64,000 bases of DNA, from NCBI GenBank assembly GCA_947359465.1, contig OX375880.1:23822714-23886713 (forward strand), read 5' to 3'. A program made the translations under genes and the position numbers. Origin of the DNA: Metellina segmentata. Taxonomy: Eukaryota; Arthropoda; Arachnida; Araneae; Tetragnathidae. Positions 23,501 through 61,240 of this stretch are shown here, one piece after another (position 1 is the stretch's first letter; each line of letters starts with the position of its first letter). Under the pieces are notes generated by a model, which was not told the origin of the DNA, made no database searches, and saw nothing but the letters and a program-made list of their open reading frames with translations.

Positions 23501-26500
23501 AAATTTTACCTTAATCGATACCTAAAAATATGATTTTCTTTAAATAAATCATTTTTAAATTGAAAATATCTTTTATATTTTCGAAAGAGATTGTGACATT
23601 AAGTGAAACAGACTGCATCTTCTGCCCTTCGTGTTAAAAAAAAGTAACAGATTACATTTCCTGTCCTATTCCATTTCAGGGAATGAGCAAAAAATAAAAA
23701 ACACTTTGACTGGGGTTGTTAATTCTTTTTTGTAAAATCGGAATCGCTAAAGACAGATTGAAAATTTCAATGGATTTGAAATCTGCTGGAAAATGTACAC
23801 CAGATTAATAACTTGCATCACGGCGTCGCCACGCTGTTTCTAGTGATACATAATGACTGAATTGACCCTGGGGAGAACCTTTTACCAAAAATATTGCAAC
23901 ATATGTTGGTATGTTTTTATAATAATAATTTTTTTTGGCATATTAAATTTTTCTTTTAGTTATTTGCAATCTAATTAAGTTAAACCCATGATTGTAAAAT
24001 GTTTCTAAAATATTTACTAGAACTTGATATTTTCTAGTTTTTTTATTTTAATCATACAAAATAAAAATTCAAAGTTAGCAACTTGTAGATTTAATGCCGT
24101 ATATCAGTGGTCCCCAACCCCCGGGCCGCAGACCGGTACCGGTCCGTGGATCAAATGGTGCCGGGCCGCCTAAGAAATATTTAATTATTTCCATTTTATT
24201 TACTGTAGGGTATTTATCTCAGGTTTGTGTGGTTCTTATCTATAAAATGTCCACTCAAATTAGGAGGCGTTAATCAGAACTTAAAATTTGTACTGTTATG
24301 TTCAATTATGATTTCGGAATTCTGTATGTCTCTATTTTACAATTTTGACAAATGTGACGACTGTTTTCAAGATGGCAGACAAAGTAGCTGAATTTAAGGC
24401 CAAACTGAAGTTTTGGGGACAGCGTGTAAACAGAGGCATTTTGGACATGTTTCAGATATTAGCGGGGATTTTAGGCGAGACTGAGCCTAAATATTCATTC
24501 TCCTAGTTGGTGCACGATCACCTGTCTTTGCTTTTAAAACAGTTTGAGCGCTTCGTGGGTATTTTGTGGTTGGGAAACCAAAAAATACCCACAAACTAGT
24601 AAGGAATGGATCCGCAACCCATGTGTCAACAAATTAGGTGAATCTAGCATGTCTGTGCAAGAAGAAGATCAACTGCTGGAGATTGCAAATGAAGGCGGCC
24701 TTAAAACTACGTTCGAGACAACAACTCTGCCGGTGTTCTGGATTAAAGTCATGGCGGAATACCCTGGGATTGCCACCACAGCACTTAAATCCTTATTGCC
24801 ATTTCCGACAACCTATCTGTGTGAAGCGGGGTTTTCTGCAGTGACAGCAACCAAAACAAAACGACGGAATAAACTGGACATAAGCAACACACTTCAGGTG
24901 TCATTGTCTCCTATTACCCCTAGATGAAACTGTCTCGTTGCAAAGAAACAAGATTAGGGTTCTCATTGATTTAGCGTTCTAGTGAGTTAAAATGTTAAAT
25001 CCCATTATATTAATTTTTTGGTGTAACTGTATTTTATTTTGAAGGCATGTTTAAATACAATTCAATTGAAATTATTAAATCAACGTCCCTTTCCCTCCCC
25101 CCCTCAGCGGGCCGCGTTAAAATTATCAAACGTTGATCCGGTCCGCAGCGATAAAAAGGTTGGGGAGCACTGCCGTATATGATACAATACTTTCATTCTT
25201 CATAAAACCAATCCACCTTAAATGGAAAATAAAGCTAGGATATGAACTCAAATAGCTAATTTGACGTGTAAAAGATTGTAGCTTATCATACTTAAGACTT
25301 CTTTTCTGAACCATCAACAGTCTGTTTTTAAAAAATGTTATGATGGAAAGACGTATTTTTTTAAATTTTCAATAGACAAAGCTGTTGAAGTTTTAAATAT
25401 GTTACAAGGTTCGATTCCTGTTCTGTGAATAATGAAAAATTGTATGTTTCTTATGTGTTTTAAAATTAATAATTGTGCTGTGCCTCATGTAATCCTTTAG
25501 ATTGTCAGAATTTTTGTGACAAAATTTTATACTAATTATAAGTAGTAATCAAAAGTGCTATTTTTATATACTATAGGCCAAAGAACTCAAGACAGAGATG
25601 TTGTGTTAAATTTGAAGCATGGCGTTGAAGCAAAGAGTTATGATAATGTAAGTAAAATATCTGTGACTGGTTGTAAATATATATACATTGAAAATTGTTA
25701 AAACTGAATTAATGTTACTTAGATTAAGCACCGTCTGCAGCACATCTCCTTTAGGAGTGTTTGAGTTTCATGAACTCAAGACACTTGTGATCTTCTTTCC
25801 CCTGTGGGATTTTCTTGTGTTTGGTACAGCTTAACCAAATATGGCCCTTGCGTCATAAAACAAATTACCAATGAAAGCAATCAACTAATCTTAGATTAAG
25901 CTTGACGGTTTTTCCCCTTCAGTTTATGAATTTAAATCACTGCTGTAAATAATTTGTTTCTTAGCTGAATTAGCTAATTATTTCAATTTCAGATCGCAGA
26001 AGTCGGCCGCCTGAAGCCATTGGAAGTAGAGTTACAGAAGCTTGAAGATCTGTCTGAATCTATCGTCAAAGATTTTGCATACATGCGTCAGCGAGAAGCG
26101 GAGATGCGAGACACGAATGGTAATTATAATTTAGATCTTTATTATTTGTAAATAACCTTAGCATGGAGCATTTCTTTTTCTGAATTATGATACAGTTAAT
26201 TAACCTTTACGCTACGGCACTTGGATTTTTTCAATCGTCTCTTTGGCCTGACTCTCCGATCCCCCTTTCATAGTATTGCGTGGCGTGAGAAGATATATCA
26301 CAGGAGCGTCTTTCTGCCTTTCCCACAGCGTTCACACCTCATGGTCGATAGGGTAGGGGGGGCACCGAACGAAAGGAGGGCCCCTCTAGAAGGTCAGTTG
26401 CAGACAGCTGGTAAATGGTGATGAATACCAGCCAAAGGGGGTAACATCCACAGTACACAAATCTATACCATGCCACTGATGTAAACTAAATTTTAGTGGT

Positions 26501-33407: not shown

Positions 33408-34018
33408 GGGGATATGTTGATTGTTTATATTTTAGATTGTTTTGATTTAATAATTTTAATTTAATTGGATATTTAAACATGCCTTCAAAATAAAATACAG
33501 TTACACCAAAAAATGAATATAATGTGATTGAACATTTCAACTCACTAGAACGCTAAATCAATAAAATAGTTTCCCAACCACAAAAAAACCCTCGAAGCGC
33601 TCGAGCTCTTTTAAAAGCAAAGGCAGGTGATCGTGCATCAACTAGGAGAATGAATGTTAGTAGGGGGATAATAGGCATCCTGGACCATGTGGATTATAGA
33701 TTATGGTGAGAGAATTGTTGTATGCACTATCTTGTGGGTGGTGGAGGGGGTGGTAAATTTCTTGGAATTTACAATACCCACTTACTTTGTTTGCGTAATA
33801 TGACAGGTAGCGCCATCTAGTGAGGGGATGAACAATTAAACGAACTTTAGCGAATAAATATAAAATTAAGGAAACTACGGTATTTTCTTAAATTAAAGAC
33901 TAAATGACTGGTACCGCCACCTAGGGGTGTAAAAAGTAACGATTAGTTTTAAAAGATTTATTTTCTTGCTGATACTTTAGAATTAAACGGAGAATTATTT
34001 GAAAGAAAAATAATAATA

Positions 34019-34097
34019 CGTGGATTCGAACCCAGCAAAAGGTAATCGCGGCCAACCGTTTTTTCACAAGCTCTTAAGCCGTTCGGCCACGACCACC
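34019..34097 (-). tRNA. tRNA-like sequence, left arm
   Basis: Minus strand GGTGGTCGTGGCCGAACGG... carries a good Pol III A box (TGGCCGAACGG) and a perfect B box (GGTTCGAATCC) spaced as in a long-variable-arm (Ser/Leu type) tRNA. The acceptor and T stems pair imperfectly and I could not assign an anticodon, so it may be a decayed tRNA or a tRNA-derived promoter rather than a working tRNA gene. Confidence 0.4.
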
Positions 34098-34618
34098 TAA
34101 ATGATCGTGTTATATTTAAAATAGTCTATCATTCTGTTAATGCGTATAGTACATACTACCAAAGATTGAAAAAGTCTAGAAGCTTCTGGAACGGGTGACT
34201 AAGAAATAGTAGTGCCTAATACATGAGTAATGTTGTACCCATAAGGCAGTAAGATAACAGAGTTAAACACTGACTAGACAAAAATACGTAGTATCAAAGA
34301 TTGAAAAGTCTAGAAGTCTCTGGAACATGTGATAATATGACAAAGGATAATATTTTTGCACGTGTAGGTTAAAGAGAAGGAACGGAATTATACAAGGAAT
34401 CATCGATAAAAGTGACTCAAAATAAAATTAAAGATTAGCTTAAACTACCGAAGTACACGTGTTGTGGTATCTGAAAATGTTAGGAACCAAACAAAAGAAG
34501 GTGATTATACTGTTTGATAACTAAGAGGCTTTTAAAAGCGTAGTTGAACTTGTTTCTTGGGTCTTTGAATAACTTTGCTTCTCTGGATTTTTGCCCTTCT
34601 ACTGTTTTTAGATACATC

Positions 34619-35254
34619 ATGGATTCTAGTGATATTAGACCTACAAAGAAAATGCGTACAGACAAAGAACAGTGTTTCCAGAAATACTGTAAAGATTCTT
34701 TATGCTATGAATATGGTAAATTGTTTACAGATTGTGATGGTTGGTCATATTTCCGTCGATTGGAAAACGAATTAACGTATTTAAAGAAAGAGGAAACTAC
34801 TATAGAAATTTCCGGTAAAAAACATACTGTGCTTCGACAACTTGTAGCATACGGAGACGAATTTATAAGCTATACCTTTAGTGGATCTTGTATTGCAGCC
34901 AAGCCCTGGTCTCCTTTAATGTTGGAAATAAAGGGTGAAGTGGAACGAATAATTGATGCAAGATTTAATTTTGTGTTGGTGAACCGTTAAAAAGATGGTA
35001 AGGACTATATAGGTGCACATAAAGACAACGAGAAGGACTTGGATCTTAATGCACACATAGCGTCTGTTTCATTTGGACAAAAAAGACAGTTTGTGTTTTC
35101 TAGAAAGAACTACAACTCTTTAAAAATTGTTCCGGAAAATGGAAGCTTACTTGTAATGATATATCAGACAAACAAATTTTGGTTGCACAGCTTGCCCCGC
35201 GGAAATGCATTATGCCCTAGAATTAACTTAACGTTTCGAAAAATTATTGTATAA
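34619..35254 (+). pseudogene. AlkB (ALKBH2/3-like) dioxygenase, nonsense-broken, left arm
   Basis: ATG at 34619, preceded by ttctactgtttttag, which looks like a splice acceptor. The 34619-34990 part reads SISGKK-type N-terminal half with YGDEFISYTFSG and KPWSPLMLEI. An in-frame TAA (34988-34990) interrupts it, and the same frame continues to 35254. The continuation holds the iron ligands H-x-D (YIGAHKDNEKD) and the second His (FWLHSLPR), then PRINLTFR with the 2-oxoglutarate-binding arginines. AlkB enzymes reverse N-alkyl damage in DNA or RNA by oxidative demethylation and occur in cells and in several viruses. Apart from the stop the catalytic set is complete. The identical stop in the other arm shows it predates the duplication or was copied by conversion. 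Confidence 0.88.
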
Positions 35255-36749
35255 GTTAGTGATAAACACCATATGTACCCCCTGAACTGGAACACAGTGT
35301 AAATAGGGATGTACACTAAACGATATTTGGAAAACGTTACAATTAATATTTATGCCTTTGTGAATATTGTTTTTTATACTTACATCTTATTGTTATTTTA
35401 AGGAAACTTTTATTCGTGTCTTACCACATACACTGTATTTTGGATTTTTTTAAAATTAAATACTAATTTTAAAAATTGTGATTTTTACAATACAAGATCT
35501 GAGATGAAATTTATTTGCTATAAATATTTATGTTTTTAATTTAGATTCGTTCACTTAAACACTAATTATACATTAGATGCTATAGCACATATTTTATTGC
35601 ATGATTTATTTTCAAATACTGTACACTTAAATAAAAGTACAATTTTTTTTTTGGAAAACTTTGCAAGACCCATACTATGAACATGTTTTCTTGTAAAATT
35701 TTCTTTTAATTGGACAAGAGAAAACTCATCCATATTATTTTTTTATTTAAATAAATCTGTCTGAAATGTAGTGATTTTATTGTTTAGATTTGCAAACTTT
35801 TTAAAATGAAATTTTCTTTGATTTATTGTAAAATGTTAAGATGCTTTTACACACAAAAAATAGATACTATTACACATATTTTAATAATGATTTTGAAAAA
35901 ATATGATTGAAACATATAAATTAGCTATTATTACAAATTTTTAAATGCAGATTACAAAAAAAAAATATTTTCGATTTACTATAAAGACATTTAGCAGTTT
36001 GATTTCTTGAATCGTGTTTTTATGTAAGAAAAAAAAATTAAGAAGAAACCTGTAAAAGTAAAATATTTTTTACCTCTAGTTTGAAACTTTTCAAGACCCA
36101 TACTATGAAGATGTTTACTTGTACATTTGAAGTAGTGAAAATGAATATTAATAAACTTTTAGTCTTTGAAGTTCAAAATTAAATGTTCTTTTTTCTAATG
36201 CTCTTGCAAACAATACATTTTACTAAATAGATTAACTTCTTTTTATTTACTTGAAAACATTGTGTATTATATTATACACAGTTTAAATTGCGGAGCCAAA
36301 TGCCAATTTTGTACAAGTATTTTACAAGATACTTTGTATAGGTCTTTATAATTTTAGATATACTACATTGCTACGTTAAATGGATAGTAAGTGGGTTTTG
36401 TGATTTTTAAAATAATGTATACACTTCTAGGCTGCTAAACAAAATAATTTTTTTTTGCCCTTTCTTGATAGTTAATTCTAAAGATTTACTCACACCACTG
36501 ATACTTTCACACATGAGTAAAATTAAAAAACAACAGAAATTTTTAAATACTAATTAATTTTTAAATGAACAAATATCGTTGAAATAATGTTTAAGTATAA
36601 CTTCTATGTGTTCTTCAAACAATCTCTGCAAGAAACAAATTGTTCTAAAACATATTAAAAAATAATTCTAAAACATATTGAAAGAAATACTGAAACAAAG
36701 TAAACTATATAACACTTTTTAATTGAAAAATAACCAGTATTCATATATT
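35255..36749. other. AT-rich non-coding part of left arm with a 41-bp direct repeat
   Basis: No gene was recognised. A 41-bp motif (core gcaagacccatactatga) occurs at 35655-35695 and again at 36083-36123 with four or so differences. The mirror of the region is 43091-44584. Confidence 0.6.
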
Positions 36750-37360
36750 TTACACAAAATAATGCATTATAATAAAAACAAAAGAACTTATTTTATATAT
36801 GCCTGTATTTTTTAAGAGACATATATTTCCTATGAGCCAGTTATTAAATGTCGTCACCTCAGCTTTTGGGCAATGCAAATGATTGTTTTGATTACCGCAT
36901 GGTAGTTTTTGGATCTCTTTGTTGCTGCTAAAACACATAGTGCATCGAATTTTGGACACCCTTGGACTTGGAATTTTGGACCAAAGTGTTCCAAGTTGAT
37001 GTTCGGAATATTCAAGGCATCTAAGCGTTGTTTCTCAACACAATCACCTTTGTAAGCAACTAGGTACTGAGAGGCACTCTTTGTCTGCTTGTATGATTCC
37101 AAAAGTTTAGAGTATAGACTTTCTAAGGGATACACGTTTTCCCCTGCTATGGGACAGAAAGGAAGTCCACACACGTAATTTTCGACATATCGCACAGTTT
37201 TACGATCTTTGGCACTAACTTTATACTTATAAGGCGATAGGTTAAAACGAATACTTGAAGCTACTTGCGATTTTATAGCGATGTATCCGTATTCACGTAC
37301 TAAAAAACCTTCCTTAGTCTGAAATCCATCAAAATCCACAATTGCGCAAATGTTAAACAT
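36750..37360 (-). pseudogene. DEDD-exonuclease-like unrecognised protein, left arm
   Basis: ATG at 37360 (MFNICAIVDFDGF). The frame runs to 36854. A frameshift at about 36935 is suggested because the neighbouring frame (to 36750) continues with a cysteine/histidine cluster (LPCGNQNNHLHCPKAEV...FNNWL) that looks like the natural end of the same protein. VDFDGF, REYGYI and later YKG...EKQRL...INLE..G.PKFDAL follow the spacing of a DEDD (RNase T-like) nuclease fold, but the usual D-x-E active-site pair is altered, so activity is doubtful. I recall similar proteins as common in arthropod genomes and mobile or viral DNA; this is a memory, not a search. Family unassigned. Confidence 0.6.
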
Positions 37361-37653
37361 TGCTATTGAAAAGCGTTCTCTGTTTGTGGATAAATAATTG
37401 TAAACTGGAGACACAAAGAACTGATCTATATAACACTATACACTTACTAATCAGTAAAGTTAATCTTATTTTAGTCTTTTATCTTTTATGAGTAACAATG
37501 AACTCGTAAGTGAAGAATGTAGTAAGAAAACACGTGCTTGTGATAATGCGACGAGTAAAGTTTTATGTTGTAGTACAGGATTTTAACTAAAGGGGGGTAT
37601 GCTTAAATGTGCATGTAATTTGTTCTTTTTTTTTTTTTTGCTCTATCACGTAG

Positions 37654-37706
37654 ATGAGCTGAGTACAGTTCAATTCGATGTATCTCAACTTGAGCAAGAT
37701 AAAAAA
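37654..37706 (+). other. candidate small exon in left arm
   Basis: A T-tract ending in ctctatcacgTAG precedes 53 bases that read ELSTVQFDVSQLEQDKK and are followed by GTATGT. Upstream, ATG 37488 opens a 33-codon frame (MSNNELVSEECSKKTRACDN...). Together they could be the 5' exons of the BIR-like gene downstream. A mirror copy lies near 42134-42186. Confidence 0.3.
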
Positions 37707-38121
37707 GTATGTAACCAAATATAATTTATATTCGAGGAACTTGTTTTTTACTTTTCTTTAAAATATACTGATTTTTTTTTATCATGCTGTTTTATTTTTC
37801 TAAATTTACTTCAGCAAATTGAATTATTTATTTATGGGCACAAATCTTTGCCTTTTGTTGAACAGAAATTAGTATCTTTGACTAGTATCAGATTTTTTAA
37901 AAATTGACGAAGATAACTTTTATGAGGGATTTAACTCAATAGGCCCTATAATTTTACACTTAAGAGTAACAGAGCAGTATAGTTTTTAGGAAAATGAATA
38001 ACCATTGTAAAGATTCATCGAGTCCAAGAATGTCTTTTTGTGATTTATTTTCGGACATCAAACAAACAGTACAAACGGTACAACAACACAACAAACGATA
38101 ATATTACGGTGAGATACATAA

Positions 38122-38554
38122 ATTCAAGTTTCAAGAAAAAGGAGGGAGCTCATCAAGAAAGCTCACACCCGAAGCCGTGCCATTCAGGAAATCTTTGAAA
38201 TTGTTTTGAATCACATTACTTTACGAACGATCACGTGGTCTCGCCGAGAGTGTCAGCAAAAAGCTCCACTCTCAACAACACCCACGTGGTACATTCCTAT
38301 TCTCAACAACCATTATGTAAATTTGAAGCCAAAATTTCCAAGTATGTCTATGTTCAATAAACGCCTGTCTACGTTTAGAGATTGGCCACGCACAAACTTT
38401 GACATTTGGGACGACCTGGCCGAAAACGGATTGTTTTATACGGGTATATTGGACAGGGTCAGGGTGTTACTGGTGTGGCGAAGGGCTTGAAAATTGGCAA
38501 GAAGAGGATGTAGTGAGACACGAACACGTGGTAAAATTGTGTAGGAAAGACTAA
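38122..38554 (+). pseudogene. BIR-domain (IAP-like) protein, frameshifted, left arm
   Basis: An open frame begins after a TAA at 38119-38121 with no ATG until 38344. The BIR domain starts at LSTFRDWPRTNF and continues ENGLFYTG. A one-base shift near 38465 is needed to reach the rest, where the zinc ligands C-x2-C (CYWCGEGLENW), H (VRHEH) and C (KLCRKD) and the stop at 38552-38554 lie. BIR proteins bind caspases or related partners through this zinc fold, and IAP-type genes are recurrent cargo of large insect DNA viruses. No RING domain follows. The same break is in both arms. Confidence 0.82.
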
Positions 38555-38754
38555 AACCTCTTCTAAATATATTAAATATAATAACTATTTTACTTATTTG
38601 TTGTTTGTTCATTACACGCTAAACCTATTTTGGATAGATGAATTTTAAAATGCCTTAAAAAGTAGTTACAAATTGCTTTAAGAAAGATGTGTGTAAAATT
38701 ACTATGTGTTAATGCAAGAAATCTGGAAATAAATATTCATATTTTGAGATTTTT

Positions 38755-39235
38755 TCCTTTTTTATTTTCTAACTGATTTTTTACTGCATAACTTTTTCTT
38801 TTTTTATTCTTCTTGATAAACTTTACTTTGCTTTTGCCTCTTCTTTTTATTATTATTATTTTTTTTTAAATACCGTAATTTTTTTTTGTTGCTGCTTAAC
38901 TTTTGTTTCTTTTACTGTTAAACTTTATTTTTTATTTTTTACTGTAAAACTTTTTGTCACTTTGTTTCGTTACTACTTATTTTTTTTTTTACTGTTTAAT
39001 TTCTTTTACTGTTAAACTTTTTTTTTCCCTGTAAATCTTTTTGTTGCTTTGTTTTGTTACTACTTAACTTTTTTTATTTTATTAGTATTACTTTATTTTA
39101 CTGTTTAATTTCTTTTCCCGTTAAACTTTTTTTTTTACTGTAAACTTTTTGTTACTTTGTTTTGTTATACTTAACTTTTTTTTGAATTTTTTTTTTATTG
39201 TTTAACTTTTTTTAACTTTTTTTTAACAATATTTA
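38755..39235. repeat. T-rich low-complexity tract, left arm
   Basis: About 480 bp with extreme strand bias towards T on the plus strand. Phrases such as ttactgttaaactttttt and gttactttgttttgttacta recur several times. The mirror image is A-rich. Confidence 0.85.
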
Positions 39236-39431
39236 CAAAAAATACTATAATTGTTAAGTAGAATATTTTTTTCGACAACACAGGATTGAAGATTAAGTAG
39301 TTTTTGAAAACATAGGAATCGGTAAAACAGTTAATATAATTGTTGTAACATATCTTACAGGTCTTTTACATACATTTCTCTAACAGTATTTAAAATATCT
39401 GTTGTAATCAAATTCTCAAAAAAGTTATACT

Positions 39432-39933
39432 CTAATATATGTCACAAAAGTTTAACAATTTATTGCTCTCTCTTACAAAATGAATAGCAAACTCTTTCCA
39501 GTTAACTACACATAAAGCAAGGGTGAAAAATTCGCAAAAGCGTTCGTCAACACTCATCTTCATACATGTAGGTACAGATTGATTGACAATTTCATTCTTA
39601 CAGCCTAAGCAATCAAAAAGAATAGTAATATTTTTTACCACAATTTCCTTTAGGCACTTGCAGAGAGAAGCTATAACTTCTCTCCAACAATCAGATTTAT
39701 CAGTATCACTGCAGTAAAGTTTGTAACTTTCACCAGGAAAACCATTTTTAGATTTCCAGTTTCACATAGTATGACAGCAAATACGTCAAAATTGATATTT
39801 TCAATATATCTAACACATTAGCGTAGCATTCGCACAATTTAAAATACTGATCAGAATTCATAAACACACAATGGGGTGAGAACTGAAAACAATGGTCTTT
39901 TTTCTGAAATACACGTTGTAAAACCAAGTCCAT
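39432..39933 (-). pseudogene. unrecognised protein at the fold-back point, left arm
   Basis: ATG 39933 (MDLVLQRVFQKKDHC) reads across the spacer into the arm (FMNSDQYFKLCECYAN) and stops at 39748. The next frame continues from GFPGESYKLYCSDTDKSDCW to a stop at 39432, implying one frameshift near 39755. It is cysteine-rich and partly helical (TLALCVVNWKEFAIHFVRES). I do not recognise the family. Position and decay match the other cargo. Confidence 0.5.
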
Positions 39934-39934
39934 T
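39890..39934. other. asymmetric spacer at the centre of the palindrome
   Basis: A 45-bp non-palindromic centre. On the minus strand it carries ATG 39933 and the first codons of the left-arm copy of the central gene, so it belongs to the original gene's 5' end. The right-arm copy lacks those codons. The fold-back point therefore lies just inside this gene. Confidence 0.75.
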
Positions 39935-39962
39935 TTTTCAGTTCTCGCCCCATTGTGTGTTT

Positions 39963-40392
39963 ATGAATTCTGATCAGTATTTTAAATTGTGCGAATGCTA
40001 CGCTAATGTGTCAGATATATTGAAAATATCAATTTTGACGTATTTGCTGTCATACTATGTGAAACTGGAAATCTAAAAATGGTTTTCCTGGTGAAAGTTA
40101 CAAACTTTACTGCAGTGATACTGATAAATCTGATTGTTGGAGAGAAGTTATAGCTTCTCTCTGCAAGTGCCTAAAGGAAATTGTGGTAAAAAATATTACT
40201 ATTCTTTTTGATTGCTTAGGCTGTAAGAATGAAATTGTCAATCAATCTGTACCTACATGTATGAAGATGAGTGTTGACGAACGCTTTTGCGAATTTTTCA
40301 CCCTTGCTTTATGTGTAGTTAACTGGAAAGAGTTTGCTATTCATTTTGTAAGAGAGAGCAATAAATTGTTAAACTTTTGTGACATATATTAG
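39963..40392 (+). pseudogene. unrecognised protein at the fold-back point, right arm
   Basis: Mirror copy. It shares the sequence from FSPHCVF onward, with a Leu/Ser difference in CYAN-V/S-DIL, but lacks the original first codons. ATG 39963 (MNSDQYF) is the first start shared with the left copy. An upstream frame exists only by chance through the spacer. Confidence 0.5.
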
Positions 40393-40589
40393 AGTATAAC
40401 TTTTTTGAGAATTTGATTACAACAGATATTTTAAATACTGTTAGAGAAATGTATGTAAAAGACCTGTAAGATATGTTACAACAATTATATTAACTGTTTT
40501 ACCGATTCCTATGTTTTCAAAAACTACTTAATCTTCAATCCTGTGTTGTCGAAAAAAATATTCTACTTAACAATTATAGTATTTTTTGT

Positions 40590-41070
40590 AAATATTGTTA
40601 AAAAAAAGTTAAAAAAAGTTAAACAATAAAAAAAAATTCAAAAAAAAGTTAAGTATAACAAAACAAAGTAACAAAAAGTTTACAGTAAAAAAAAAAGTTT
40701 AACGGGAAAAGAAATTAAACAGTAAAATAAAGTAATACTAATAAAATAAAAAAAGTTAAGTAGTAACAAAACAAAGCAACAAAAAGATTTACAGGGAAAA
40801 AAAAAGTTTAACAGTAAAAGAAATTAAACAGTAAAAAAAAAAATTAAGTAGTAACGAAACAAAGTGACAAAAAGTTTTACAGTAAAAAATAAAAAATAAA
40901 GTTTAACAGTAAAAGAAACAAAAGTTAAGCAGCAACAAAAAAAAAATTACGGTATTTAAAAAAAAATAATAATAATAAAAAGAAGAGGCAAAAGCAAAGT
41001 AAAGTTTATCAAGAAGAATAAAAAAAGAAAAAGTTATGCAGTAAAAAATCAGTTAGAAAATAAAAAAGGA
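40590..41070. repeat. A-rich low-complexity tract, right arm
   Basis: Mirror of 38755-39235. Single-base length differences between the arms occur here. Confidence 0.85.
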
Positions 41071-41270
41071 AAAAATCTCAAAATATGAATATTTATTTCC
41101 AGATTTCTTGCATTAACACATAGTAATTTTACACACATCTTTCTTAAAGCAATTTGTAACTACTTTTTAAGGCATTTTAAAATTCATCTATCCAAAATAG
41201 GTTTAGCGTGTAATGAACAAACAACAAATAAGTAAAATAGTTATTATATTTAATATATTTAGAAGAGGTT

Positions 41271-41703
41271 TTAGTCTTTCCTACACAATTTTACCACGTG
41301 TTCGTGTCTCACTACATCCTCTTCTTGCCAATTTTCAAGCCCTTCGCCACACCAGTAACACCCTGACCCTGTCCAATATACCCGTATAAAACAATCCGTT
41401 TTCGGCCAGGTCGTCCCAAATGTCAAAGTTTGTGCGTGGCCAATCTCTAAACGTAGACAGGCGTTTATTGAACATAGACATACTTGGAAATTTTGGCTTC
41501 AAATTTACATAATGGTTGTTGAGAATAGGAATGTACCACGTGGGTGTTGTTGAGAGTGGAGCTTTTTGCTGACACTCTCGGCGAGACCACGTGATCGTTC
41601 GTAAAGTAATGTGATTCAAAACAATTTCAAAGATTTCCTGAATGGCACGGCTTCGGGTGTGAGCTTTCTTGATGAGCTCCCTCCTTTTTCTTGAAACTTG
41701 AAT
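41271..41703 (-). pseudogene. BIR-domain (IAP-like) protein, frameshifted, right arm
   Basis: Mirror copy of 38122-38554 with the same frameshift. Confidence 0.82.
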
Positions 41704-42479
41704 TTATGTATCTCACCGTAATATTATCGTTTGTTGTGTTGTTGTACCGTTTGTACTGTTTGTTTGATGTCCGAAAATAAATCACAAAAAGACATTCTTG
41801 GACTCGATGATTCTTGGACTCGATGAATCTTTACAATGGTTATTCATTTTCCTAAAAACTATACTGCTCTGTTACTCTTAAGTGTAAAATTATAGGGCCT
41901 ATTGAGTTAAATCCCTCATAAAAGTTATCTTCGTCAATTTTTAAAAAATCTGATACTAGTCAAAGATACTAATTTCTGTTCAACAAAAGGCAAAGATTTG
42001 TGCCCATAAATAAATAATTCAATTTGCTGAAGTAAATTTAGAAAAATAAAACAGCATGATAAAAAAAAATCAGTATATTTTAAAGAAAAGTAAAAAACAA
42101 GTTCCTCGAATATAAATTATATTTGGTTACATACTTTTTTATCTTGCTCAAGTTGAGATACATCGAATTGAACTGTACTCAGCTCATCTACGTGATAGAG
42201 CAAAAAAAAAAAAAGAACAAATTACATGCACATTTAAGCATACCCCCCTTTAGTTAAAATCCTGTACTACAACATAAAACTTTACTCGTCGCATTATCAC
42301 AAGCACGTGTTTTCTTACTACATTCTTCACTTACGAGTTCATTGTTACTCATAAAAGATAAAAGACTAAAATAAGATTAACTTTACTGATTAGTAAGTGT
42401 ATAGTGTTATATAGATCAGTTCTTTGTGTCTCCAGTTTACAATTATTTATCCACAAACAGAGAACGCTTTTCAATAGCA

Positions 42480-43090
42480 ATGTTTAACATTTGCGCAATT
42501 GTGGATTTTGATGGATTTCAGACTAAGGAAGGTTTTTTAGTACGTGAATACGGATACATCGCTATAAAATCGCAAGTAGCTTCAAGTATTCGTTTTAACC
42601 TATCGCCTTATAAGTATAAAGTTAGTGCCAAAGATCGTAAAACTGTGCGATATGTCGAAAATTACGTGTGTGGACTTCCTTTCTGTCCCATAGCAGGGGA
42701 AAACGTGTATCCCTTAGAAAGTCTATACTCTAAACTTTTGGAATCATACAAGCAGACAAAGAGTGCCTCTCAGTACCTAGTTGCTTACAAAGGTGATTGT
42801 GTTGAGAAACAACGCTTAGATGCCTTGAATATTCCGAACATCAACTTGGAACACTTTGGTCCAAAATTCCAAGTCCAAGGGTGTCCAAAATTCGATGCAC
42901 TATGTGTTTTAGCAGCAACAAAGAGATCCAAAAACTACCATGCGGTAATCAAAACAATCATTTGCATTGCCCAAAAGCTGAGGTGACGACATTTAATAAC
43001 TGGCTCATAGGAAATATATGTCTCTTAAAAAATACAGGCATATATAAAATAAGTTCTTTTGTTTTTATTATAATGCATTATTTTGTGTAA
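42480..43090 (+). pseudogene. DEDD-exonuclease-like unrecognised protein, right arm
   Basis: Mirror copy of 36750-37360, same start and same apparent frameshift. Transcribed outwards, opposite to the AlkB gene, so the two genes converge in each arm. Confidence 0.6.
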
Positions 43091-44584
43091 AATATATGAA
43101 TACTGGTTATTTTTCAATTAAAAAGTGTTATATAGTTTACTTTGTTTCAGTATTTCTTTCAATATGTTTTAGAATTATTTTTTAATATGTTTTAGAACAA
43201 TTTGTTTCTTGCAGAGATTGTTTGAAGAACACATAGAAGTTATACTTAAACATTATTTCAACGATATTTGTTCATTTAAAAATTAATTAGTATTTAAAAA
43301 TTTCTGTTGTTTTTTAATTTTACTCATGTGTGAAAGTATCAGTGGTGTGAGTAAATCTTTAGAATTAACTATCAAGAAAGGGCAAAAAAAAATTATTTTG
43401 TTTAGCAGCCTAGAAGTGTATACATTATTTTAAAAATCACAAAACCCACTTACTATCCATTTAACGTAGCAATGTAGTATATCTAAAATTATAAAGACCT
43501 ATACAAAGTATCTTGTAAAATACTTGTACAAAATTGGCATTTGGCTCCGCAATTTAAACTGTGTATAATATAATACACAATGTTTTCAAGTAAATAAAAA
43601 GAAGTTAATCTATTTAGTAAAATGTATTGTTTGCAAGAGCATTAGAAAAAAGAACATTTAATTTTGAACTTCAAAGACTAAAAGTTTATTAATATTCATT
43701 TTCACTACTTCAAATGTACAAGTAAACATCTTCATAGTATGGGTCTTGAAAAGTTTCAAACTAGAGGTAAAAAATATTTTACTTTTACAGGTTTCTTCTT
43801 AATTTTTTTTTCTTACATAAAAACACGATTCAAGAAATCAAACTGCTAAATGTCTTTATAGTAAATCGAAAATATTTTTTTTTGTAATCTGCATTTAAAA
43901 ATTTGTAATAATAGCTAATTTATATGTTTCAATCATATTTTTTCAAAATCATTATTAAAATATGTGTAATAGTATCTATTTTTTGTGTGTAAAAGCATCT
44001 TAACATTTTACAATAAATCAAAGAAAATTTCATTTTAAAAAGTTTGCAAATCTAAACAATAAAATCACTACATTTCAGACAGATTTATTTAAATAAAAAA
44101 ATAATATGGATGAGTTTTCTCTTGTCCAATTAAAAGAAAATTTTACAAGAAAACATGTTCATAGTATGGGTCTTGCAAAGTTTTCCAAAAAAAAAATTGT
44201 ACTTTTATTTAAGTGTACAGTATTTGAAAATAAATCATGCAATAAAATATGTGCTATAGCATCTAATGTATAATTAGTGTTTAAGTGAACGAATCTAAAT
44301 TAAAAACATAAATATTTATAGCAAATAAATTTCATCTCAGATCTTGTATTGTAAAAATCACAATTTTTAAAATTAGTATTTAATTTTAAAAAAATCCAAA
44401 ATACAGTGTATGTGGTAAGACACGAATAAAAGTTTCCTTAAAATAACAATAAGATGTAAGTATAAAAAACAATATTCACAAAGGCATAAATATTAATTGT
44501 AACGTTTTCCAAATATCGTTTAGTGTACATCCCTATTTACACTGTGTTCCAGTTCAGGGGGTACATATGGTGTTTATCACTAAC

Positions 44585-45220
44585 TTATACAATAATTTTT
44601 CGAAACGTTAAGTTAATTCTAGGGCATAATGCATTTCCGCGGGGCAAGCTGTGCAACCAAAATTTGTTTGTCTGATATATCATTACAAGTAAGCTTCCAT
44701 TTTCCGGAACAATTTTTAAAGAGTTGTAGTTCTTTCTAGAAAACACAAACTGTCTTTTTTGTCCAAATGAAACAGACGCTATGTGTGCATTAAGATCCAA
44801 GTCCTTCTCGTTGTCTTTATGTGCACCTATATAGTCCTTACCATCTTTTTAACGGTTCACCAACACAAAATTAAATCTTGCATCAATTATTCGTTCCACT
44901 TCACCCTTTATTTCCAACATTAAAGGAGACCAGGGCTTGGCTGCAATACAAGATCCACTAAAGGTATAGCTTATAAATTCGTCTCCGTATGCTACAAGTT
45001 GTCGAAGCACAGTATGTTTTTTACCGGAAATTTCTATAGTAGTTTCCTCTTTCTTTAAATACGTTAATTCGTTTTCCAATCGACGGAAATATGACCAACC
45101 ATCACAATCTGTAAACAATTTACCATATTCATAGCATAAAGAATCTTTACAGTATTTCTGGAAACACTGTTCTTTGTCTGTACGCATTTTCTTTGTAGGT
45201 CTAATATCACTAGAATCCAT
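44585..45220 (-). pseudogene. AlkB dioxygenase, nonsense-broken, right arm
   Basis: Exact mirror copy of 34619-35254, including the internal TAA. Transcription would run towards the centre of the palindrome in both arms. Confidence 0.88.
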
Positions 45221-45741
45221 GATGTATCTAAAAACAGTAGAAGGGCAAAAATCCAGAGAAGCAAAGTTATTCAAAGACCCAAGAAACAAGTTCAACTACG
45301 CTTTTAAAAGCCTCTTAGTTATCAAACAGTATAATCACCTTCTTTTGTTTGGTTCCTAACATTTTCAGATACCACAACACGTGTACTTCGGTAGTTTAAG
45401 CTAATCTTTAATTTTATTTTGAGTCACTTTTATCGATGATTCCTTGTATAATTCCGTTCCTTCTCTTTAACCTACACGTGCAAAAATATTATCCTTTGTC
45501 ATATTATCACATGTTCCAGAGACTTCTAGACTTTTCAATCTTTGATACTACGTATTTTTGTCTAGTCAGTGTTTAACTCTGTTATCTTACTGCCTTATGG
45601 GTACAACATTACTCATGTATTAGGCACTACTATTTCTTAGTCACCCGTTCCAGAAGCTTCTAGACTTTTTCAATCTTTGGTAGTATGTACTATACGCATT
45701 AACAGAATGATAGACTATTTTAAAAATAACACGATCATTTA

Positions 45742-45820
45742 GGTGGTCGTGGCCGAACGGCTTAAGAGCTTGTGAAAAAACGGTTGGCCGCGATTACCTT
45801 TTGCTGGGTTCGAATCCACG
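45742..45820 (+). tRNA. tRNA-like sequence, right arm
   Basis: Mirror copy of 34019-34097 with the same A and B boxes. Both copies would be transcribed outwards, towards the element's ends. Confidence 0.4.
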
Positions 45821-46572
45821 TATTATTATTTTTCTTTCAAATAATTCTCCGTTTAATTCTAAAGTATCAGCAAGAAAATAAATCTTTTAAAACTAATCGT
45901 TACTTTTTACACCCCTAGGTGGCGGTACCAGTCATTTAGTCTTTAATTTAAGAAAATACCGTAGTTTCCTTAATTTTATATTTTATATTTATTCGCTAAA
46001 GTTCGTTTAATTGTTCATCCCCTCACTAGATGGCGCTACCTGTCATATTACGCAAACAAAGTAAGTGGGTATTGTAAATTCCAAGAAATTTACCACCCCC
46101 TCCACCACCCACAAGATAGTGCATACAACAATTCTCTCACCATAATCTATAATCCACAATCCACATGGTCCAGGATGCCTATTATCCCCCTACTAATGTT
46201 TAGGCTCAGTCTCGCCTAAAATTCCCGCTAATGTCTGAAACATGTCCAAAAAGCCTCTGTTCACGTGCCGTCCCCACAACTTCGGATTTAAATGCAGCTA
46301 CTTTGTCTGCCAACTTGAAAACAGTTGTCACATTTCTCAAAATTAGAAAATGGAGACATACAGAATTCAGAATTGAAACTCTAGTAACAGAACAAATTTC
46401 AAGTTCTGATTTGCCGCCTCCTAATTTGAGTGGACATTTCATAGATAAGAACCGCACAAACCCGAGATAAATACACCAAAGTAAATAAAATGGAAATAAT
46501 TTAATATTTCTTGGACGGCCCGGTACCATTTGATCCACGGACCGGTACCGCCCCGGGGGTTGGGGACCACTG

Positions 46573-47430: not shown

Positions 47431-47757
47431 CCTAGCCGACCAACCGGTATAGTGGTTAAGGTGTTAGCCTCTAGATCGGAAGGTTCCTGGTTCGAATCCG
47501 GGCATGGGTGTTTGTAAACGTATGGTGTAGAGGCGGCTGGTGCACCTTAAATCTGTCGTGGCCGAAAGTCCTCACGTTGGGTTGGCGTGGAAGTTTGGAG
47601 AGTGGGGTGCCAGCTCAGGTGTTGCTTCGTCATCTGACCGTGGTTCAAAATTACGAGGTGTTGTCCTCGAATCTTTCCCTTAAGGGACTGATTCCGGACC
47701 GTCGTCAATAGCCCGTTGTGTTGCTCTAGTACGACGTTAACTAAAATTACCATTACC
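47431..47757 (+). mobile_element. tRNA-derived SINE, full length, 13-bp TSD
   Basis: A tRNA-like head (ggtatagtggttaagg as A box; ggttcgaatccgg as B box), a body of about 250 bp and an (ATTACC)n tail. It is flanked by TGAGTGCACCTCT at 47418-47430 and 47758-47770. The target duplication shows LINE-assisted retrotransposition. This is the best reference copy of family 1. Confidence 0.93.
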
Positions 47758-47850
47758 TGAGTGCACCTCTACTTAAATATTTCTGTTTTGACTTCAAAAG
47801 CCATTCAAAGCTTTAATTATTCCTAATCATAACCCTCCTGAATACCTTGG

Positions 47851-48186
47851 GCCGACCAACCGGTATAGTGGTTAAGGTGTTAGCCTCTAGATCGGAAGGT
47901 TCCTGGTTCGAATCCGGGTGCGGGCATGGATGTTTGTAAACGTATGGTGTAGAGGCGGCTGGTGCACCTTAAATCTGTCGTGGCCGAAAGTCCTCACGTT
48001 GGGTTGGCGTGGAAGTTTGGAGAGTGGGGTGCCAGCTCAGGTGTTGCTTCGTCATCTGACCGTGGTTCAAAATTACGAGGTGTTGTCCTCGGATCTTTCC
48101 CTTAAGGGACTGATCCCGGACCGTCGTCAATAGCCCGTTGTGTTTCTCTAGTACGACGTTAACCAAAAATTACCATTACCATTACC
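47851..48186 (+). mobile_element. tRNA-derived SINE, full length, second copy
   Basis: Nearly identical to 47431-47757, with a tail of three ATTACC-like units. It is flanked by TGAATACCTTGG (47839-47850 and 48187-48198). Confidence 0.92.
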
Positions 48187-48221
48187 TGAATACCTTGGGC
48201 CTGTTTTCTAGTGTTATCCCC

Positions 48222-48414
48222 CCTCTCCTCACGTTGGGTTGGCGTGGAAGTTTGGAGAATGGGGTGCCAGCTCAGGTGTTGCTTCGTCATCTGACCGTGG
48301 TTCAAAATTACGAGGTGTTGTCCTCGGATCTTTCCCTTAAGTGACTGATCCCAGATCGTCGTCAATAGCCCGTTGTGTTGCTCTAGTACGACATTAACTA
48401 AAATTACCATTACC
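48222..48414 (+). mobile_element. 5'-truncated SINE copy with TSD
   Basis: Starts inside the body (cctcacgttggg) and ends with ATTACCATTACC. Flanked by TAGTGTTATCCC (48209-48220 and 48415-48426). No tRNA head. Confidence 0.88.
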
Positions 48415-48695
48415 TAGTGTTATCCCCTCCTCATTCAACTTTGTTATTTCATAAATCGTGATACGCGATCTGTATAAACACTAAAGAGTTGCGTTTATAC
48501 AGACAAGCCCCGTAGTTGTATTGCCTCATAGTTAAAACAAGTTGGTGTTACTATTAAAAGAACTAGTATGTCTAAAGACGTTAAGCAAATACTCGATCTA
48601 TTAATGTGTAATTTGAAGTATTTTCAAATGAAACAGTACCAGTTCACTACTACAGGACTTTTTAATTTCCCAAAACTAGTCACCAAGGTATAAAT

Positions 48696-48746
48696 AGTCC
48701 GTTGTGTTGCTCTAGTACGACGTTGATTAAAAAATTACCATTACCT
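48696..48746 (+). mobile_element. tail-only SINE insertion, about 51 bp, with TSD
   Basis: Contains only the last part of the SINE (cgttgtgttgctctagtacgacg and tail). It is flanked by AGGTATAAAT (48686-48695 and 48747-48756). An extreme 5' truncation. Confidence 0.85.
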
Positions 48747-48868
48747 AGGTATAAATTAAAAAAATTTAATTTAAAAAGATTGCATTTCAAACGGTTGGTA
48801 GGTTGATTTTGAACTGAGCTGCGATGAAGCCACACAACGGACTATTGGCAAACATCCGGGATCACTCC

Positions 48869-49188
48869 GGTAATTTTTTTAGTTAACGTCGTACTAGAGC
48901 AACACAACGGGCTATTGACGACGGTCCGGGATCAGTCCCTTAAGGGAAAGATCCGAGGACAACACCTCGTAATTTTGAACCACCGTCAGATGACGAAGCA
49001 ACACCTGAGCTGGCACCCCACTCTCCAAACTTCCACGCCAACCCAACGTGAGGACTTTCGGCCACGACATATTTAAGGTGCACCAGCCGCCTCTACACCA
49101 TAAGTTTACAAACATCCGGACCCGGATTCGAACCAGGAACCTTCCGATCTAGAAGCTAACACCTTAACCACTATACCGGTTGGTCGGC
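48869..49188 (-). mobile_element. tRNA-derived SINE, full length, minus strand
   Basis: Reverse-complement copy from the tail (ggtaattttttt) to the tRNA head (accggttggtcggc). Followed to about 49440 by an older minus-strand relative. Confidence 0.88.
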
Positions 49189-49615
49189 GTACTATCATCA
49201 GTGGACACCTCGTAGTATTGAACCATAGTCAGATGAGGTCAACACTTGATCTGGCACCCCACTCCAAACTTCCACACCACGCCAATATGAGATAATTTCA
49301 GACCACATCAGATTGAACGTGAACCAGTACCCACGTTCTCGATGGTCTTCGATTTAATCAAGTTTCCAACTCGCAATCTTAAGATTGCTGATCCGCGTTT
49401 CTACCAACTGGGCTACCGCAGATGTCGCATGGAATCGCCGTTTGATTGAACCGTGAAATTTGGAAGAAACGTTTAACTTTTTCGCTATCGCCATTTAGAA
49501 TCTGTTTCAACGATGAAATTTGGTTAAGCTGGACGCTATTTCTCTCTTTATTGACGCCGCTGTAGCAACGGGAAAATTTCGTGTTGAATCCAACCAAAGA
49601 CCGTCGACCAGAAAG

Positions 49616-50153
49616 GGGGCTGGTGCACGTTAAATCTGTTGTGACCTTAAATATCCACACGTTGTCTTGGTGTGGAAGTTTAGAGTGGGGTGTCAGCTCA
49701 GGTGTGACCTCGGTTCAAAATTACGTGGTATTGTCCTTTGAACTTTCACCTTAAGTTCGATCCAGGTTCGTCGCCTATAGCCCGTTGTGTTCCTCCAGTG
49801 TGATGTCAATTTAAATACCTAGCCGAAGTATATTGGCCGACCAACCGGCATAGTGGTTAAGGTGTTAGCCTCTATATAGGAAGGGTTCCTGCTTCGAATC
49901 CAGGCATGGATGTTTGTAAGCGTATGGGGTGTAGAGGCGGCTGGTGCACCTTAAACATTTCGTGGCCGAAAGTCCTCACGTTGGGTTGGTGTGGAAGTTT
50001 GGAGAGTGGGGAGCCAGCTCAGGTGTTGCCTCGTCATCTAGCCGTTCAAAATTATGTGGTGTCCTCGGATTTTTCCCTCTGGGGATTGATCCCGGACTGT
50101 CATTAAAGGCCTTTTGTGTTACTCTAGGACGACGTTATTTAAAATTACTTTAC
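49616..50153 (+). repeat. two plus-strand SINE copies
   Basis: 49616-49800 is an old headless copy. 49836-50153 is a full copy with head (gccgaccaaccggcatagtgg), B box (gcttcgaatcc) and tail. Both diverge from the 47431 copy by several percent. Confidence 0.8.
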
Positions 50154-50179
50154 CTTTCAGCTAGGTAATTAGCAACCCA

Positions 50180-50604
50180 CTGGAACATTACAACGTGCTG
50201 TTGACGACAGTCTGGGATCCATCCCGAATCGAAAGGCTCAAGAATTGCGCCTCGATTTTAAAACATGGTCAGAGGACAAGGTTAAAACCATAGCTGGCAC
50301 CCCACTCTCTAATCTTCCACTCCATGCCAACGTGAGAAAATTTGAAGTCACGACAGATTCAAGGTTTATCAGCCCTCCGGTACGCGCGGTCTATGGCTCG
50401 ACCGACTTTTGATCTTGCAGCGTAAAGGTTAAATCTGTCGTAGCCGAAAGTTCTCACGTTGAGTTGGTGTAGAGAGTGGGGTGCAAGCTTATTGGCGTTG
50501 CCTCGTCATCTGACCGTGGTTCAAAATTACGAGTTGTTGTCCTCGAATCCTTCCCTAATGGGATTGATCCCGGACCGTCGTCAATTGCCCGTTGTGTTGC
50601 TCCA
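50180..50604. repeat. SINE fragments on both strands
   Basis: 50180-50400 matches the body in antisense; 50435-50604 matches it in sense and is interrupted at 50604 by the hAT insertion. Its last bases reappear at 52378-52420. Confidence 0.75.
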
Positions 50605-52377
50605 TTAGTGATGCAAAAAACCCGGGAATTTTGGAAGAGGGGAATAAACACGGGAATTTTGTGGAATAAACCCGGAACATTGGGAATAAACTAAACCAAC
50701 CATTTTTTCACATTTTGTGGCTTCTTTTGGTTTGTTGCTAAGTAAAACTATAAAGAGAAAACCCCATATATATAAAACTACAACCTGGAAAATTGTTTCA
50801 ATAAAATTTAAATTCTCTTTTTTGGTGGAAAATATTGGTTTATTTTTATTGTATAAACAACATCAGCATTTATATCCAAATCCAGATGAATGTTGATGTG
50901 ATGGTTTTGTTCCGAGACCTAGCAGCAAAAAATAAGATGAATGTTTGCATCAAAAACAATACTTTTGTAAACATTTCATATTATCTTTATATAAAGCAGT
51001 TACAATTTACTCTCTACTTTATTGATGATTCAATTTGGCACCGGTACTTGTAAGCCTTTTATGAGGGATTAATAGCTGAAAAAAACAACGCAATATCAAG
51101 AGGATCTACTTGCAGATTCTGATAGTCCTGGATCCATATACATAGTTTCAACGTCCGTTATCACCTCTTGGAATACCACAATAACTGAAGGTTCATCGGA
51201 ATCTGCCAAAGAATAAATAGGAAAAGACATTATTTGGGAGTTTTTAACGCATTTTTCTAAATGCTTTGCCATCTTAGTAGCATTTGGTACCAGATACTTC
51301 TTGTGTGTGTGCTTCTTTAGCAGTCTTTTTATTGCCCTGACCAAACTCTGATGTGTAATGACTCCACACTGTTGAAGTTGGTCTTACCATTATCTGGAAC
51401 ACAAATCATCCCATTAGTATGAAATAGAACACTAAATTAAATTTTAAATGCTTGAGTTCCCAATTAAAAGTTGTCAAAGATACAAAACATAGCAGGTTAA
51501 AATTCACTAAGATGCTCTTAGCATTGATTGCATTATAAGTATTACTTATATAGATTGATATGAACTCATGAAATTCAATGTTTCTAGTTCATGCATGAAA
51601 CTGATGAGTAAAAACACCAAAATCAAAATTTAAAAACAAAATGCTCAGATTTCCAATAAATATCAAATTAGATTTTTAAATTTCCAACTAAACTTATACA
51701 TAGTAAAAACTTGATTTTATGTTGGGAAGATAGCTTTATCAATTGCTAATTGAAGTTTTAAAATTAGAATATAATCACATTCAAAGAGCTAGTCAAAGAA
51801 ACTTATTAATTTACTGGTATATCAATTTGCATAAAACGATGACAGTATAAATAGGAAACAGCCAACCCAGAGAATTATTCAAAGGTTCAGAATATATAGT
51901 CAGAACTATACAAAGGTTTGAATGCACACAAGGGTTCACTTAAAAAAATGTGTTCTTATGGCTCATTGGCAAAAAAGATTTAGCTCAAAAATATTGTCAT
52001 CGCATGCGCCTATTAGTACTAGTAATATCCATAAAATCTCATTAATATTTACCTTTCAATTTTTGTAAATTGCAAGATGGCAAAATTTAGGCATGAATGA
52101 TATTCTATTTCTTTAAGACGAAAATTTTCTAAAATTGATATGGTCAATGCAAACAGATGCTAGATCCCACCAAAAGAGTACACGTTTGAAGTTGCTGTTA
52201 TGAACTATTAAGGAGTTTCTAAAAAAAATATTGTTTTAAAATTTTCCAGACAAAACATTAAAAATTTTCAAAATTCCCGAAATTTCAAAATTATGGGAAG
52301 TTTTCAAAATTCCCTTCCCAAAAAACCGGGTTTATTCGCGGGAATAAACCGGGTTTTTTCCACCCTTTGCAACACTA
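50605..52377 (-). mobile_element. non-autonomous hAT-like element inside a SINE
   Basis: The left end ttagtgatgcaaaaaacccg and the right end (minus strand ctagtgttgcaaa...aaaacccgg) are inverted repeats rich in CCCGGG and GGAATAAAC. It splits a SINE whose bases GCTCCA are duplicated at 50599-50604 and 52378-52383, with neighbouring bases compatible with an imperfect 8-bp duplication. On the minus strand 51400-51100 reads as a decayed BED-finger region (RPTSTVWSHYT; then ATKMAKHLEKCVK in another frame). hAT assignment rests on the ends and this remnant. Confidence 0.7.
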
Positions 52378-61082: not shown

Positions 61083-61087
61083 TATTA

Positions 61088-61240
61088 ATTATCGTTGCAC
61101 TGGAGTAACACAACGGGCTATTGATGACGGTCCGGGATCAATCATGAAATGAAAGATCCAAGGACAACGCCACGTAATTTTCAATAGCGGTCAGATGACG
61201 AGGTCACCACCTGAGTTAGCACCCCATGGTGTGTTCTAAG
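61088..61240 (-). repeat. SINE family 1 fragment, minus strand
   Basis: Antisense body sequence (actggagtaacacaacggg; gacggtccgggatcaat). It begins directly after the mariner. Confidence 0.75.

What the first reader, a model, noticed from the sequence alone, without database searches (positions are those of the whole stretch)
33659..46194. A whole mobile element that is one giant palindrome with Polinton-type ends
The sequence shows two arms of about 6.2 kb, nearly identical in reverse complement, joined by a 45-bp spacer, with AG at both 5' termini and a 6-bp direct repeat AATGTT outside. Polinton/Maverick elements are known by exactly this end structure (6-bp duplication, AG termini), but their inverted repeats usually cover only the ends. 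Here the inverted repeat is the entire element. I infer a fold-back (snap-back) replication product of a Polinton or adintovirus-like genome that was then integrated. Protein-primed replication is known to make such palindromes in adenoviruses. I know of no described family of this form.
Basis: partly seen in the sequence, partly recalled or inferred. Interest (0 to 1): 0.95.

Follow-up and report, generated by a model that had tools for sequence, protein, structure and literature searches.

The report
Maverick-like element folded into one palindrome
A 12.5-kb piece of mobile, virus-like DNA sits in what is probably a spider genome as one almost perfect giant palindrome, cleanly inserted and with ends like those of Maverick/Polinton elements; it may be a snap-back by-product of a linear virus-like element, but only this one copy could be examined.

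Summary
Window 33659-46194 is a 12,536-bp palindrome. Its arms (6,237 and 6,265 nt) differ by three substitutions and nine small indels. Its ends begin AGTAGG, and AATGTT is duplicated outside. I add an empty site: the flanks, joined with one AATGTT, align without a gap at the junction to a second copy of the same repeat at 24105-24578 (412 of 476 positions). So the palindrome occupies a clean insertion with a 6-bp duplication.
Each arm carries an ALKBH2-like gene broken by one stop, a BIR (apoptosis-inhibitor) domain broken by one frameshift, and an unknown 186-aa ORF. Both breaks are the same in both arms. No Polinton core gene was found in 45 of 45 ORF pieces of at least 45 aa.
Most likely it is a non-autonomous, snap-back (two-left-ends) derivative of a Maverick/Polinton/adintovirus-like element: a strand folded at AATGG/CCATT (34-nt loop), was copied back to its own end, and was integrated by helper proteins. 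The Polinton link rests on duplication length and end motif alone; the defining genes are absent. Copy number, a linear parent and reads could not be checked, because the genome search did not complete (17 tries). In-situ palindrome formation, another transposon class and misassembly remain open.

The parts
33653..33658 (+). left copy of the 6-bp target-site duplication AATGTT
33659..39895 (+). left arm of the palindrome (6,237 nt), 5' end AGTAGGGGG
39896..39929 (+). 34-nt unpaired loop at the centre, closed by AATGG/CCATT
39930..46194 (-). right arm (6,265 nt), inverted copy of the left arm, ends ...CCTACT-3'
46195..46200 (+). right copy of the 6-bp target-site duplication AATGTT
34544..35251 (+). 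ALKBH2-like dioxygenase gene (left arm), split into two ORF pieces by one in-frame stop; identical in the right arm (N-terminal piece at 44849-45295, -)
   Evidence: span identical in both arms
36854..37414 (-). 186-aa ORF of unknown family (left arm), no visible break; mirrored at 42426-42986 (+)
   Evidence: its 193-aa stop-to-stop frame exceeds the longest frame of 200 of 200 shuffles of the arm; no match; chance-level rows only
38122..38551 (+). BIR (inhibitor-of-apoptosis) domain gene (left arm), the two halves of the domain in two reading frames; identical in the right arm
   Evidence: (profile 1-38 in one frame, 39-60 in the other; both scores below Pfam's cut-off); span identical in both arms
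24105..24578 (-). empty-site paralogue: another copy of the repeat in which the element sits (hAT-like by eye), uninterrupted, with AATATT at the target

Best explanation
It is a non-autonomous, snap-back derivative of a linear, Maverick/Polinton/adintovirus-like element. Proposed steps: (1) a parent with AGTAGG-type ends carried accessory genes (AlkB, BIR, unknown ORF) next to one end, and two of them were already broken [breaks shown; linear parent inferred]; (2) during linear, probably protein-primed replication, a displaced or nascent strand folded back at a short inverted match (AATGG/CCATT, 34-nt loop) and was copied back to its own end, giving a molecule with two identical 'left' ends [match and loop shown; event inferred]; (3) both ends being competent, helper polymerase and integrase acting in trans replicated the palindrome and inserted it into a hAT-like repeat with a 6-bp duplication [insertion shown; enzymes inferred]. 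As it stands it works like a defective, interfering-type genome or a giant MITE: two good ends and no core genes.
For: Whole-element palindrome with identical ends. 6-bp duplication plus an empty-site alignment without a gap at the junction. Ends AGTAGG against the published (AGT)2 Maverick motif, published TIR sizes 46-1,447 bp and element sizes 12.7-24.6 kb (PMC8097293 passages). [quoted passage not shown] Virus-type accessory genes: ALKBH2-like (PDB sequence matches 1.6e-18 for the C half and 1.1e-15 for the N half) and BIR. Of the arm differences that are not homopolymer or tandem-unit changes, 3 of 5 lie within 83 nt of the centre (P = 2.3e-5 under uniform placement, or 9.4e-6 for 3 of 4 if the A/AA change at 38979 is called slippage; the 83-nt limit was set after seeing the data). 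This fits copying that began there imprecisely, or an imperfect inverted repeat already present.
Against: No Polinton hallmark gene in 45 of 45 ORF pieces, so the link to Polintons is end motif plus duplication length only; the match is 5 of 6 to a motif published for vertebrates, while this host is probably a spider. No linear parent and no second copy was seen, because the genome search did not complete. Both arms carry the same broken AlkB and BIR, so the step did not start from an intact virus genome, unless the arms were homogenised later. The window cannot tell a fold-back of one strand from fusion of two molecules. The clustering of differences at the centre would also arise if arm-to-arm gene conversion fails near the loop.
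Confidence: 0.52

Rival explanations
1. Palindrome made in place: an ordinary Maverick-like element with shorter terminal repeats inserted with a 6-bp duplication, and the host's repair (template switch at a break, sister fusion, or conversion between the two terminal repeats) later replaced one half with an inverted copy of the other.
For: The same end state results. The shared broken genes fit a palindrome built from a copy already decaying in the chromosome. Few arm differences fit a recent event.
Against: Needs a second event that ends exactly at the far terminal repeat, keeps the right flank and the duplication, and removes the whole core. Direct insertion of the palindrome needs fewer steps (inference).
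Confidence: 0.17
2. A fold-back DNA transposon of another class with 6-bp duplications that captured AlkB and BIR genes and has nothing to do with Polintons.
For: No Polinton core gene in the arm. Long-inverted-repeat DNA transposons with captured genes exist (recalled).
Against: The 6-bp duplication together with (AGT)2-type ends is the published signature of vertebrate Mavericks, met here in 5 of 6 end bases. AlkB with BIR looks like a viral accessory set (inference). Ginger-type elements have TGTNR ends and 4-5-bp duplications (PMC2836005 passages), and LTR elements end TG..CA (recalled), so neither fits.
Confidence: 0.17
3. Assembly artefact: the locus holds an ordinary or truncated element and the assembler closed it through a fold-back read or through another copy.
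For: Long palindromes are a known weak spot of assembly (recalled). No reads could be examined. Five of the arm differences are 1-nt indels in or beside homopolymers, typical of consensus error as well as of slippage.
Against: The two outer ends have different flanks which together reconstitute a second copy of the same repeat with one 6-mer; a fold-back read alone would repeat one flank. The arms differ by three tandem-unit indels and three substitutions, so they are not one sequence copied in silico.
Confidence: 0.12

Closest known systems
Maverick/Polinton elements (intact vertebrate Mavericks, PMC8097293, passages seen)
   Same: 6-bp target duplication; ends close to (AGT)2//(ACT)2; total length just below the published 12.7-24.6 kb; accessory genes flanking the core
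   Different: inverted repeat is the entire element instead of 46-1,447 bp; no polB, integrase, ATPase, protease or capsid genes found
Adintoviruses (recalled; the founding paper PMC8502044 is not held; passages of PMC8363768 seen for three Drosophila-associated ones)
   Same: integrase- and PolB-bearing animal viruses of 13.3-14.6 kb could supply suitable ends and helper proteins
   Different: none of their core genes is here; the words AlkB and apoptosis do not occur in the main text of PMC8363768
Adenovirus snap-back defective genomes with two left ends, and palindromic products of protein-primed phage phi29 amplification (recalled, no call)
   Same: palindrome with two identical replication-competent ends, centre at a fold-back point
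   Different: those are free DNA molecules or in-vitro products; this one is integrated in a host genome with a target duplication
MITEs and fold-back DNA transposons (recalled)
   Same: non-autonomous, mostly inverted repeat, mobilised in trans
   Different: 12.5 kb with virus-like genes and Maverick-like ends

Membership tests
Maverick/Polinton | 6-bp target-site duplication | tested here: met
   AATGTT on both sides; empty site without a gap at the junction
Maverick/Polinton | end motif (AGT)2 or (AG)3 at both ends | tested here: inconclusive
   AGTAGG at both ends, 5 of 6 to (AGT)2; the motif is published for vertebrates
Maverick/Polinton | protein-primed polB, rve integrase, ATPase, protease, capsid genes | tested here: not met
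   no such match in 45 of 45 left-arm ORF pieces of 45 aa or more scanned against Pfam (6, 10 each; two rescanned); shorter frames not scanned
Maverick/Polinton | terminal inverted repeats of tens to hundreds of bp enclosing a unique core | tested here: not met
   the inverted repeat is the whole element, 34-nt loop
Non-autonomous derivative mobilised by Polinton machinery | shares terminal sequence with an autonomous element in the same genome | not tested
   The genome search unreachable in 17 tries
Snap-back (two-left-ends) defective genome | both ends identical and arms identical to a short central loop | tested here: met
Snap-back (two-left-ends) defective genome | arm collinear with one end of a linear parent that continues past the loop | not tested
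   no parent found; IMG/VR scans and the protein database gave none, and the host genome could not be searched
LTR retrotransposon / Ginger | TG..CA (TGTNR) ends, 4-5-bp duplication | tested here: not met
   ends AGTAGG..CCTACT, duplication 6 bp

The most novel reading that the evidence does not exclude
Snap-back palindromes of Maverick-like elements form a self-propagating class in chelicerate genomes. With two identical ends and strands that refold into ready-made duplex origins, they out-replicate their helper as inherited defective interfering elements. Read through, they give a 6-kb hairpin RNA that could feed small-RNA silencing of the AlkB/BIR-bearing parent virus.
Probability: 0.15. 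Interest if true: 0.85.

Novelty: new variant of a known kind. Interest (0 to 1): 0.55.

Why it matters
If confirmed, it would be an integrated record of fold-back replication in a Maverick-like element, indirect evidence that these elements replicate as linear molecules whose displaced strands snap back as in adenoviruses. It would also give animals an inherited counterpart of viral defective interfering genomes. It can be tested with existing spider assemblies: look for the same ends around polB and integrase, and for more palindromes.

Tried and rejected
Chance inverted repeat: rejected. LTR or Ginger origin: rejected on ends and duplication length. A relative in IMG/VR: none confirmed by AlkB halves, one BIR piece, 186-aa ORF, 109-aa ORF or two end patterns (one of 8 scans left unused). 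End pattern in prokaryote contigs: none. Protein database: none for the 186-aa ORF (33 candidates, E up to 0.01) or the AlkB N half (3 candidates, E up to 0.001). The control query, the window's own BEL/Pao integrase, gave 3,152 hits, led by spiders among the named ones, so the database does hold spiders. Fold of the 186-aa ORF from one sequence: unusable, mean pLDDT 30.7; no fold search was made. My first guess that this ORF is a DEDD-type exonuclease rests on recall only and no call supports it. tRNA gene in the arm: only a hit at a relaxed ARAGORN setting (none).

Literature: titles and abstract starts listed (20 of 44 papers; 8 of 8; 0; 15 of 37; 2 of 2; 12 of 83) showed no palindromic Polinton/Maverick; most of those papers were not opened. 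Passages only were seen. The library is open-licence only, so absence from print is not established. Searches looked for adenovirus or phi29 palindromes and for BIR in Mavericks and listed nothing that I used apart from PMC4028283 (passages) and PMC11071308 and PMC10328495 (passages), none of which mentions AlkB or apoptosis in its main text.

Full report
What is there. Comparing the region with the window gives one inverted match spanning 33657-46196 (99.2% of 12,576 columns, 24 mismatches, the rest gaps). Careful alignment of the arms leaves three substitutions (34114/45725, 39812/40012, 39877/39947), one 1-nt gap near 39890, three tandem-unit indels (7, 7 and 16 nt, one copy more in the right arm each time) and five further 1-nt indels, four in homopolymers and one an A/AA beside a T run at 38979. 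In one search the last few columns before the loop are forced mismatches of the global alignment; I do not count them. The ungapped spacer is 45 nt. If the paired AATGG (39891-39895) and CCATT (39930-39934) are counted, the loop is 34 nt and the arms are 6,237 and 6,265 nt. The longest exact inverted match in 10 mononucleotide shuffles of the window was 15-18 nt.

It is an inserted unit. AATGTT lies immediately outside both ends. The left 500 bp joined to the right 500 bp with one AATGTT align across the junction to window 24578-24105 on the other strand: 412 of 476 positions identical, 16 gap positions, none at the insertion point. The target is thus one copy of a repeat, and the other copy shows the empty state (AATATT). 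The repeat ends CAGTGGTCCCCAACC, which I recognise from memory as hAT-like; no call names it. This is the strongest evidence that the ends are real and that the duplication was made by an integrase or transposase, and it speaks against an assembler simply mirroring one flank.

The ends. Both read AGTAGGGGGATAATAGGCATCC (2 matches in the window, at the two ends; none in shuffles). In PMC8097293 (passages seen) intact vertebrate Mavericks have 6-bp duplications, ends (AGT)2 or (AG)3 most commonly, TIRs of 46-1,447 bp and lengths of 12,723-24,620 bp. Here the duplication fits, the end fits in 5 of 6 bases, the length is just below that range, and the inverted repeat is far outside it.

The genes. 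34544-34987 and 34991-35251 are the two halves of an ALKBH2-like dioxygenase separated by one stop: residues 53-148 of the first match residues 11-106 of the ALKBH2 chain 4mg2 (E 1.1e-15), and the second matches residues 108-203 of the same chain (E 5.3e-18) and, best, 3rzg (E 1.6e-18) (Pfam PF13532, E 2e-15). A BIR domain is split between two frames, profile positions 1-38 in one (E 2.2e-4) and 39-60 in the other (E 0.018), both below Pfam's cut-off; the first piece matches an IAP structure, 1jd4, at E 2.2e-6. A 186-aa ORF (36854-37414, -) has no relative: no protein-database hit among 33 candidates, no Pfam hit at E 0.1 and only a chance-level one at E 0.12, no PHROG, no viral contig; the PDB list at E up to 5 holds two chance-level rows (best 0.2). 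Its stop-to-stop frame of 193 codons is longer than the longest frame in each of 200 shuffles of the arm (maximum 152). Its single-sequence model is useless (pLDDT 30.7). No polB, rve integrase, ATPase, protease or capsid match appeared in 45 of 45 left-arm ORF pieces of 45 aa or more; the remaining rows there, E 0.042-0.29, are chance-level. The AlkB, BIR and 186-aa spans are letter for letter the same in both arms, so both gene breaks are shared.

What the shared breaks mean. Either the palindrome was built from a copy that was already decaying, or the arms exchange sequence. In both cases the palindrome as we see it offers no unbroken AlkB or BIR gene and no replication or integration gene, so I infer that it was mobilised by proteins made elsewhere.

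The centre. Leaving out homopolymer and tandem-unit changes, 3 of 5 arm differences lie within 83 nt of the loop (P = 2.3e-5 under uniform placement; 3 of 4 and 9.4e-6 if the A/AA change is called slippage; the limit was chosen after seeing the data). That fits imprecise copying at the start of fold-back synthesis, or a pre-existing imperfect inverted repeat that served as fold-back point. It also fits weaker arm-to-arm conversion near the loop.

Host. The window's own BEL/Pao integrase, used as control, drew 3,152 database hits; among the 120 listed the best named ones are the spiders Uloborus diversus, Stegodyphus dumicola and Trichonephila clavipes at 64-67% identity (for the lineage of the last). 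The rows listed also include a scorpion and a flea, and many unnamed records. A spider, or at least a chelicerate, is therefore likely, but a retrotransposon is weak evidence of species. The same control shows that the lack of hits for two of the element's ORFs is not due to a database without arthropods, though the method needs shared 5-residue words.

Mechanism. A linear element replicated by strand displacement yields single strands. One that folds back at AATGG/CCATT and is extended to its own 5' end gives, after one more round, a palindrome with two identical ends. Such molecules are known from adenovirus and from protein-primed phage replication (recalled, no call). Two identical ends are a proper substrate for an integrase that needs two terminal repeats, and each displaced strand of the palindrome can refold into a duplex end at once, an advantage over the parent (inference). 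The insertion, the duplication, the identical ends and the loop are shown. The linear parent, the protein-primed polymerase, the integrase and the fold-back event are inferred.

What could not be done. The search of the window's own assembly was tried 17 times and never answered (last). Copy number, a linear parent, other palindromes and read support are therefore unknown.

Verdict. The titles and abstract starts listed by my searches of an open-licence library showed no palindromic Maverick (listings capped). As a kind of thing it is a new variant: a two-left-ends, non-autonomous derivative with Maverick-like ends. It is not a Polinton by definition, because the defining genes and the enclosed core are missing.

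Noticed in passing
16147-22350: BEL/Pao-type LTR retrotransposon (DUF5641 and rve matches) with 338-bp terminal repeats that are 100% identical, so a recent insertion; its coding region is split over several ORFs.
   Followed up: partly
47435-50607, also 61085-61226 and 62118-62654: Cluster of a repeat that looks by eye like a tRNA-derived SINE, in both orientations, some pairs 95-97% identical and others about 69-86%; neither ARAGORN nor Rfam named it.
   Followed up: no
62163-62453: Tandem array of a 100-bp unit, 2.9 copies, overlapping stretches related to the same SINE-like repeat.
   Followed up: no
24105-25083 and 33442-33658 + 46195-46572: Two copies of one repeat (hAT-like by eye) in opposite orientation about 9 kb apart; the second one holds the palindrome.
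   Followed up: yes
34011-34097 (-), mirrored in the right arm: tRNA-like sequence inside the arm, found only at a relaxed ARAGORN setting (called Val-AAC); not found at default settings or by Rfam.
   Followed up: partly
36854-37414 (-): 186-aa ORF, the longest open frame of the arm and without a visible break, with no relative in the databases tried.
   Followed up: yes
60273-60908 (+): 211-aa frame with a weak DDE_3 match (E 0.054, below cut-off), perhaps a mariner-type transposase remnant.
   Followed up: no
38879-39227, mirrored at 40600-40946: Degenerate T-rich tandem array inside each arm, with overlapping period estimates from 11 to 109.
   Followed up: no
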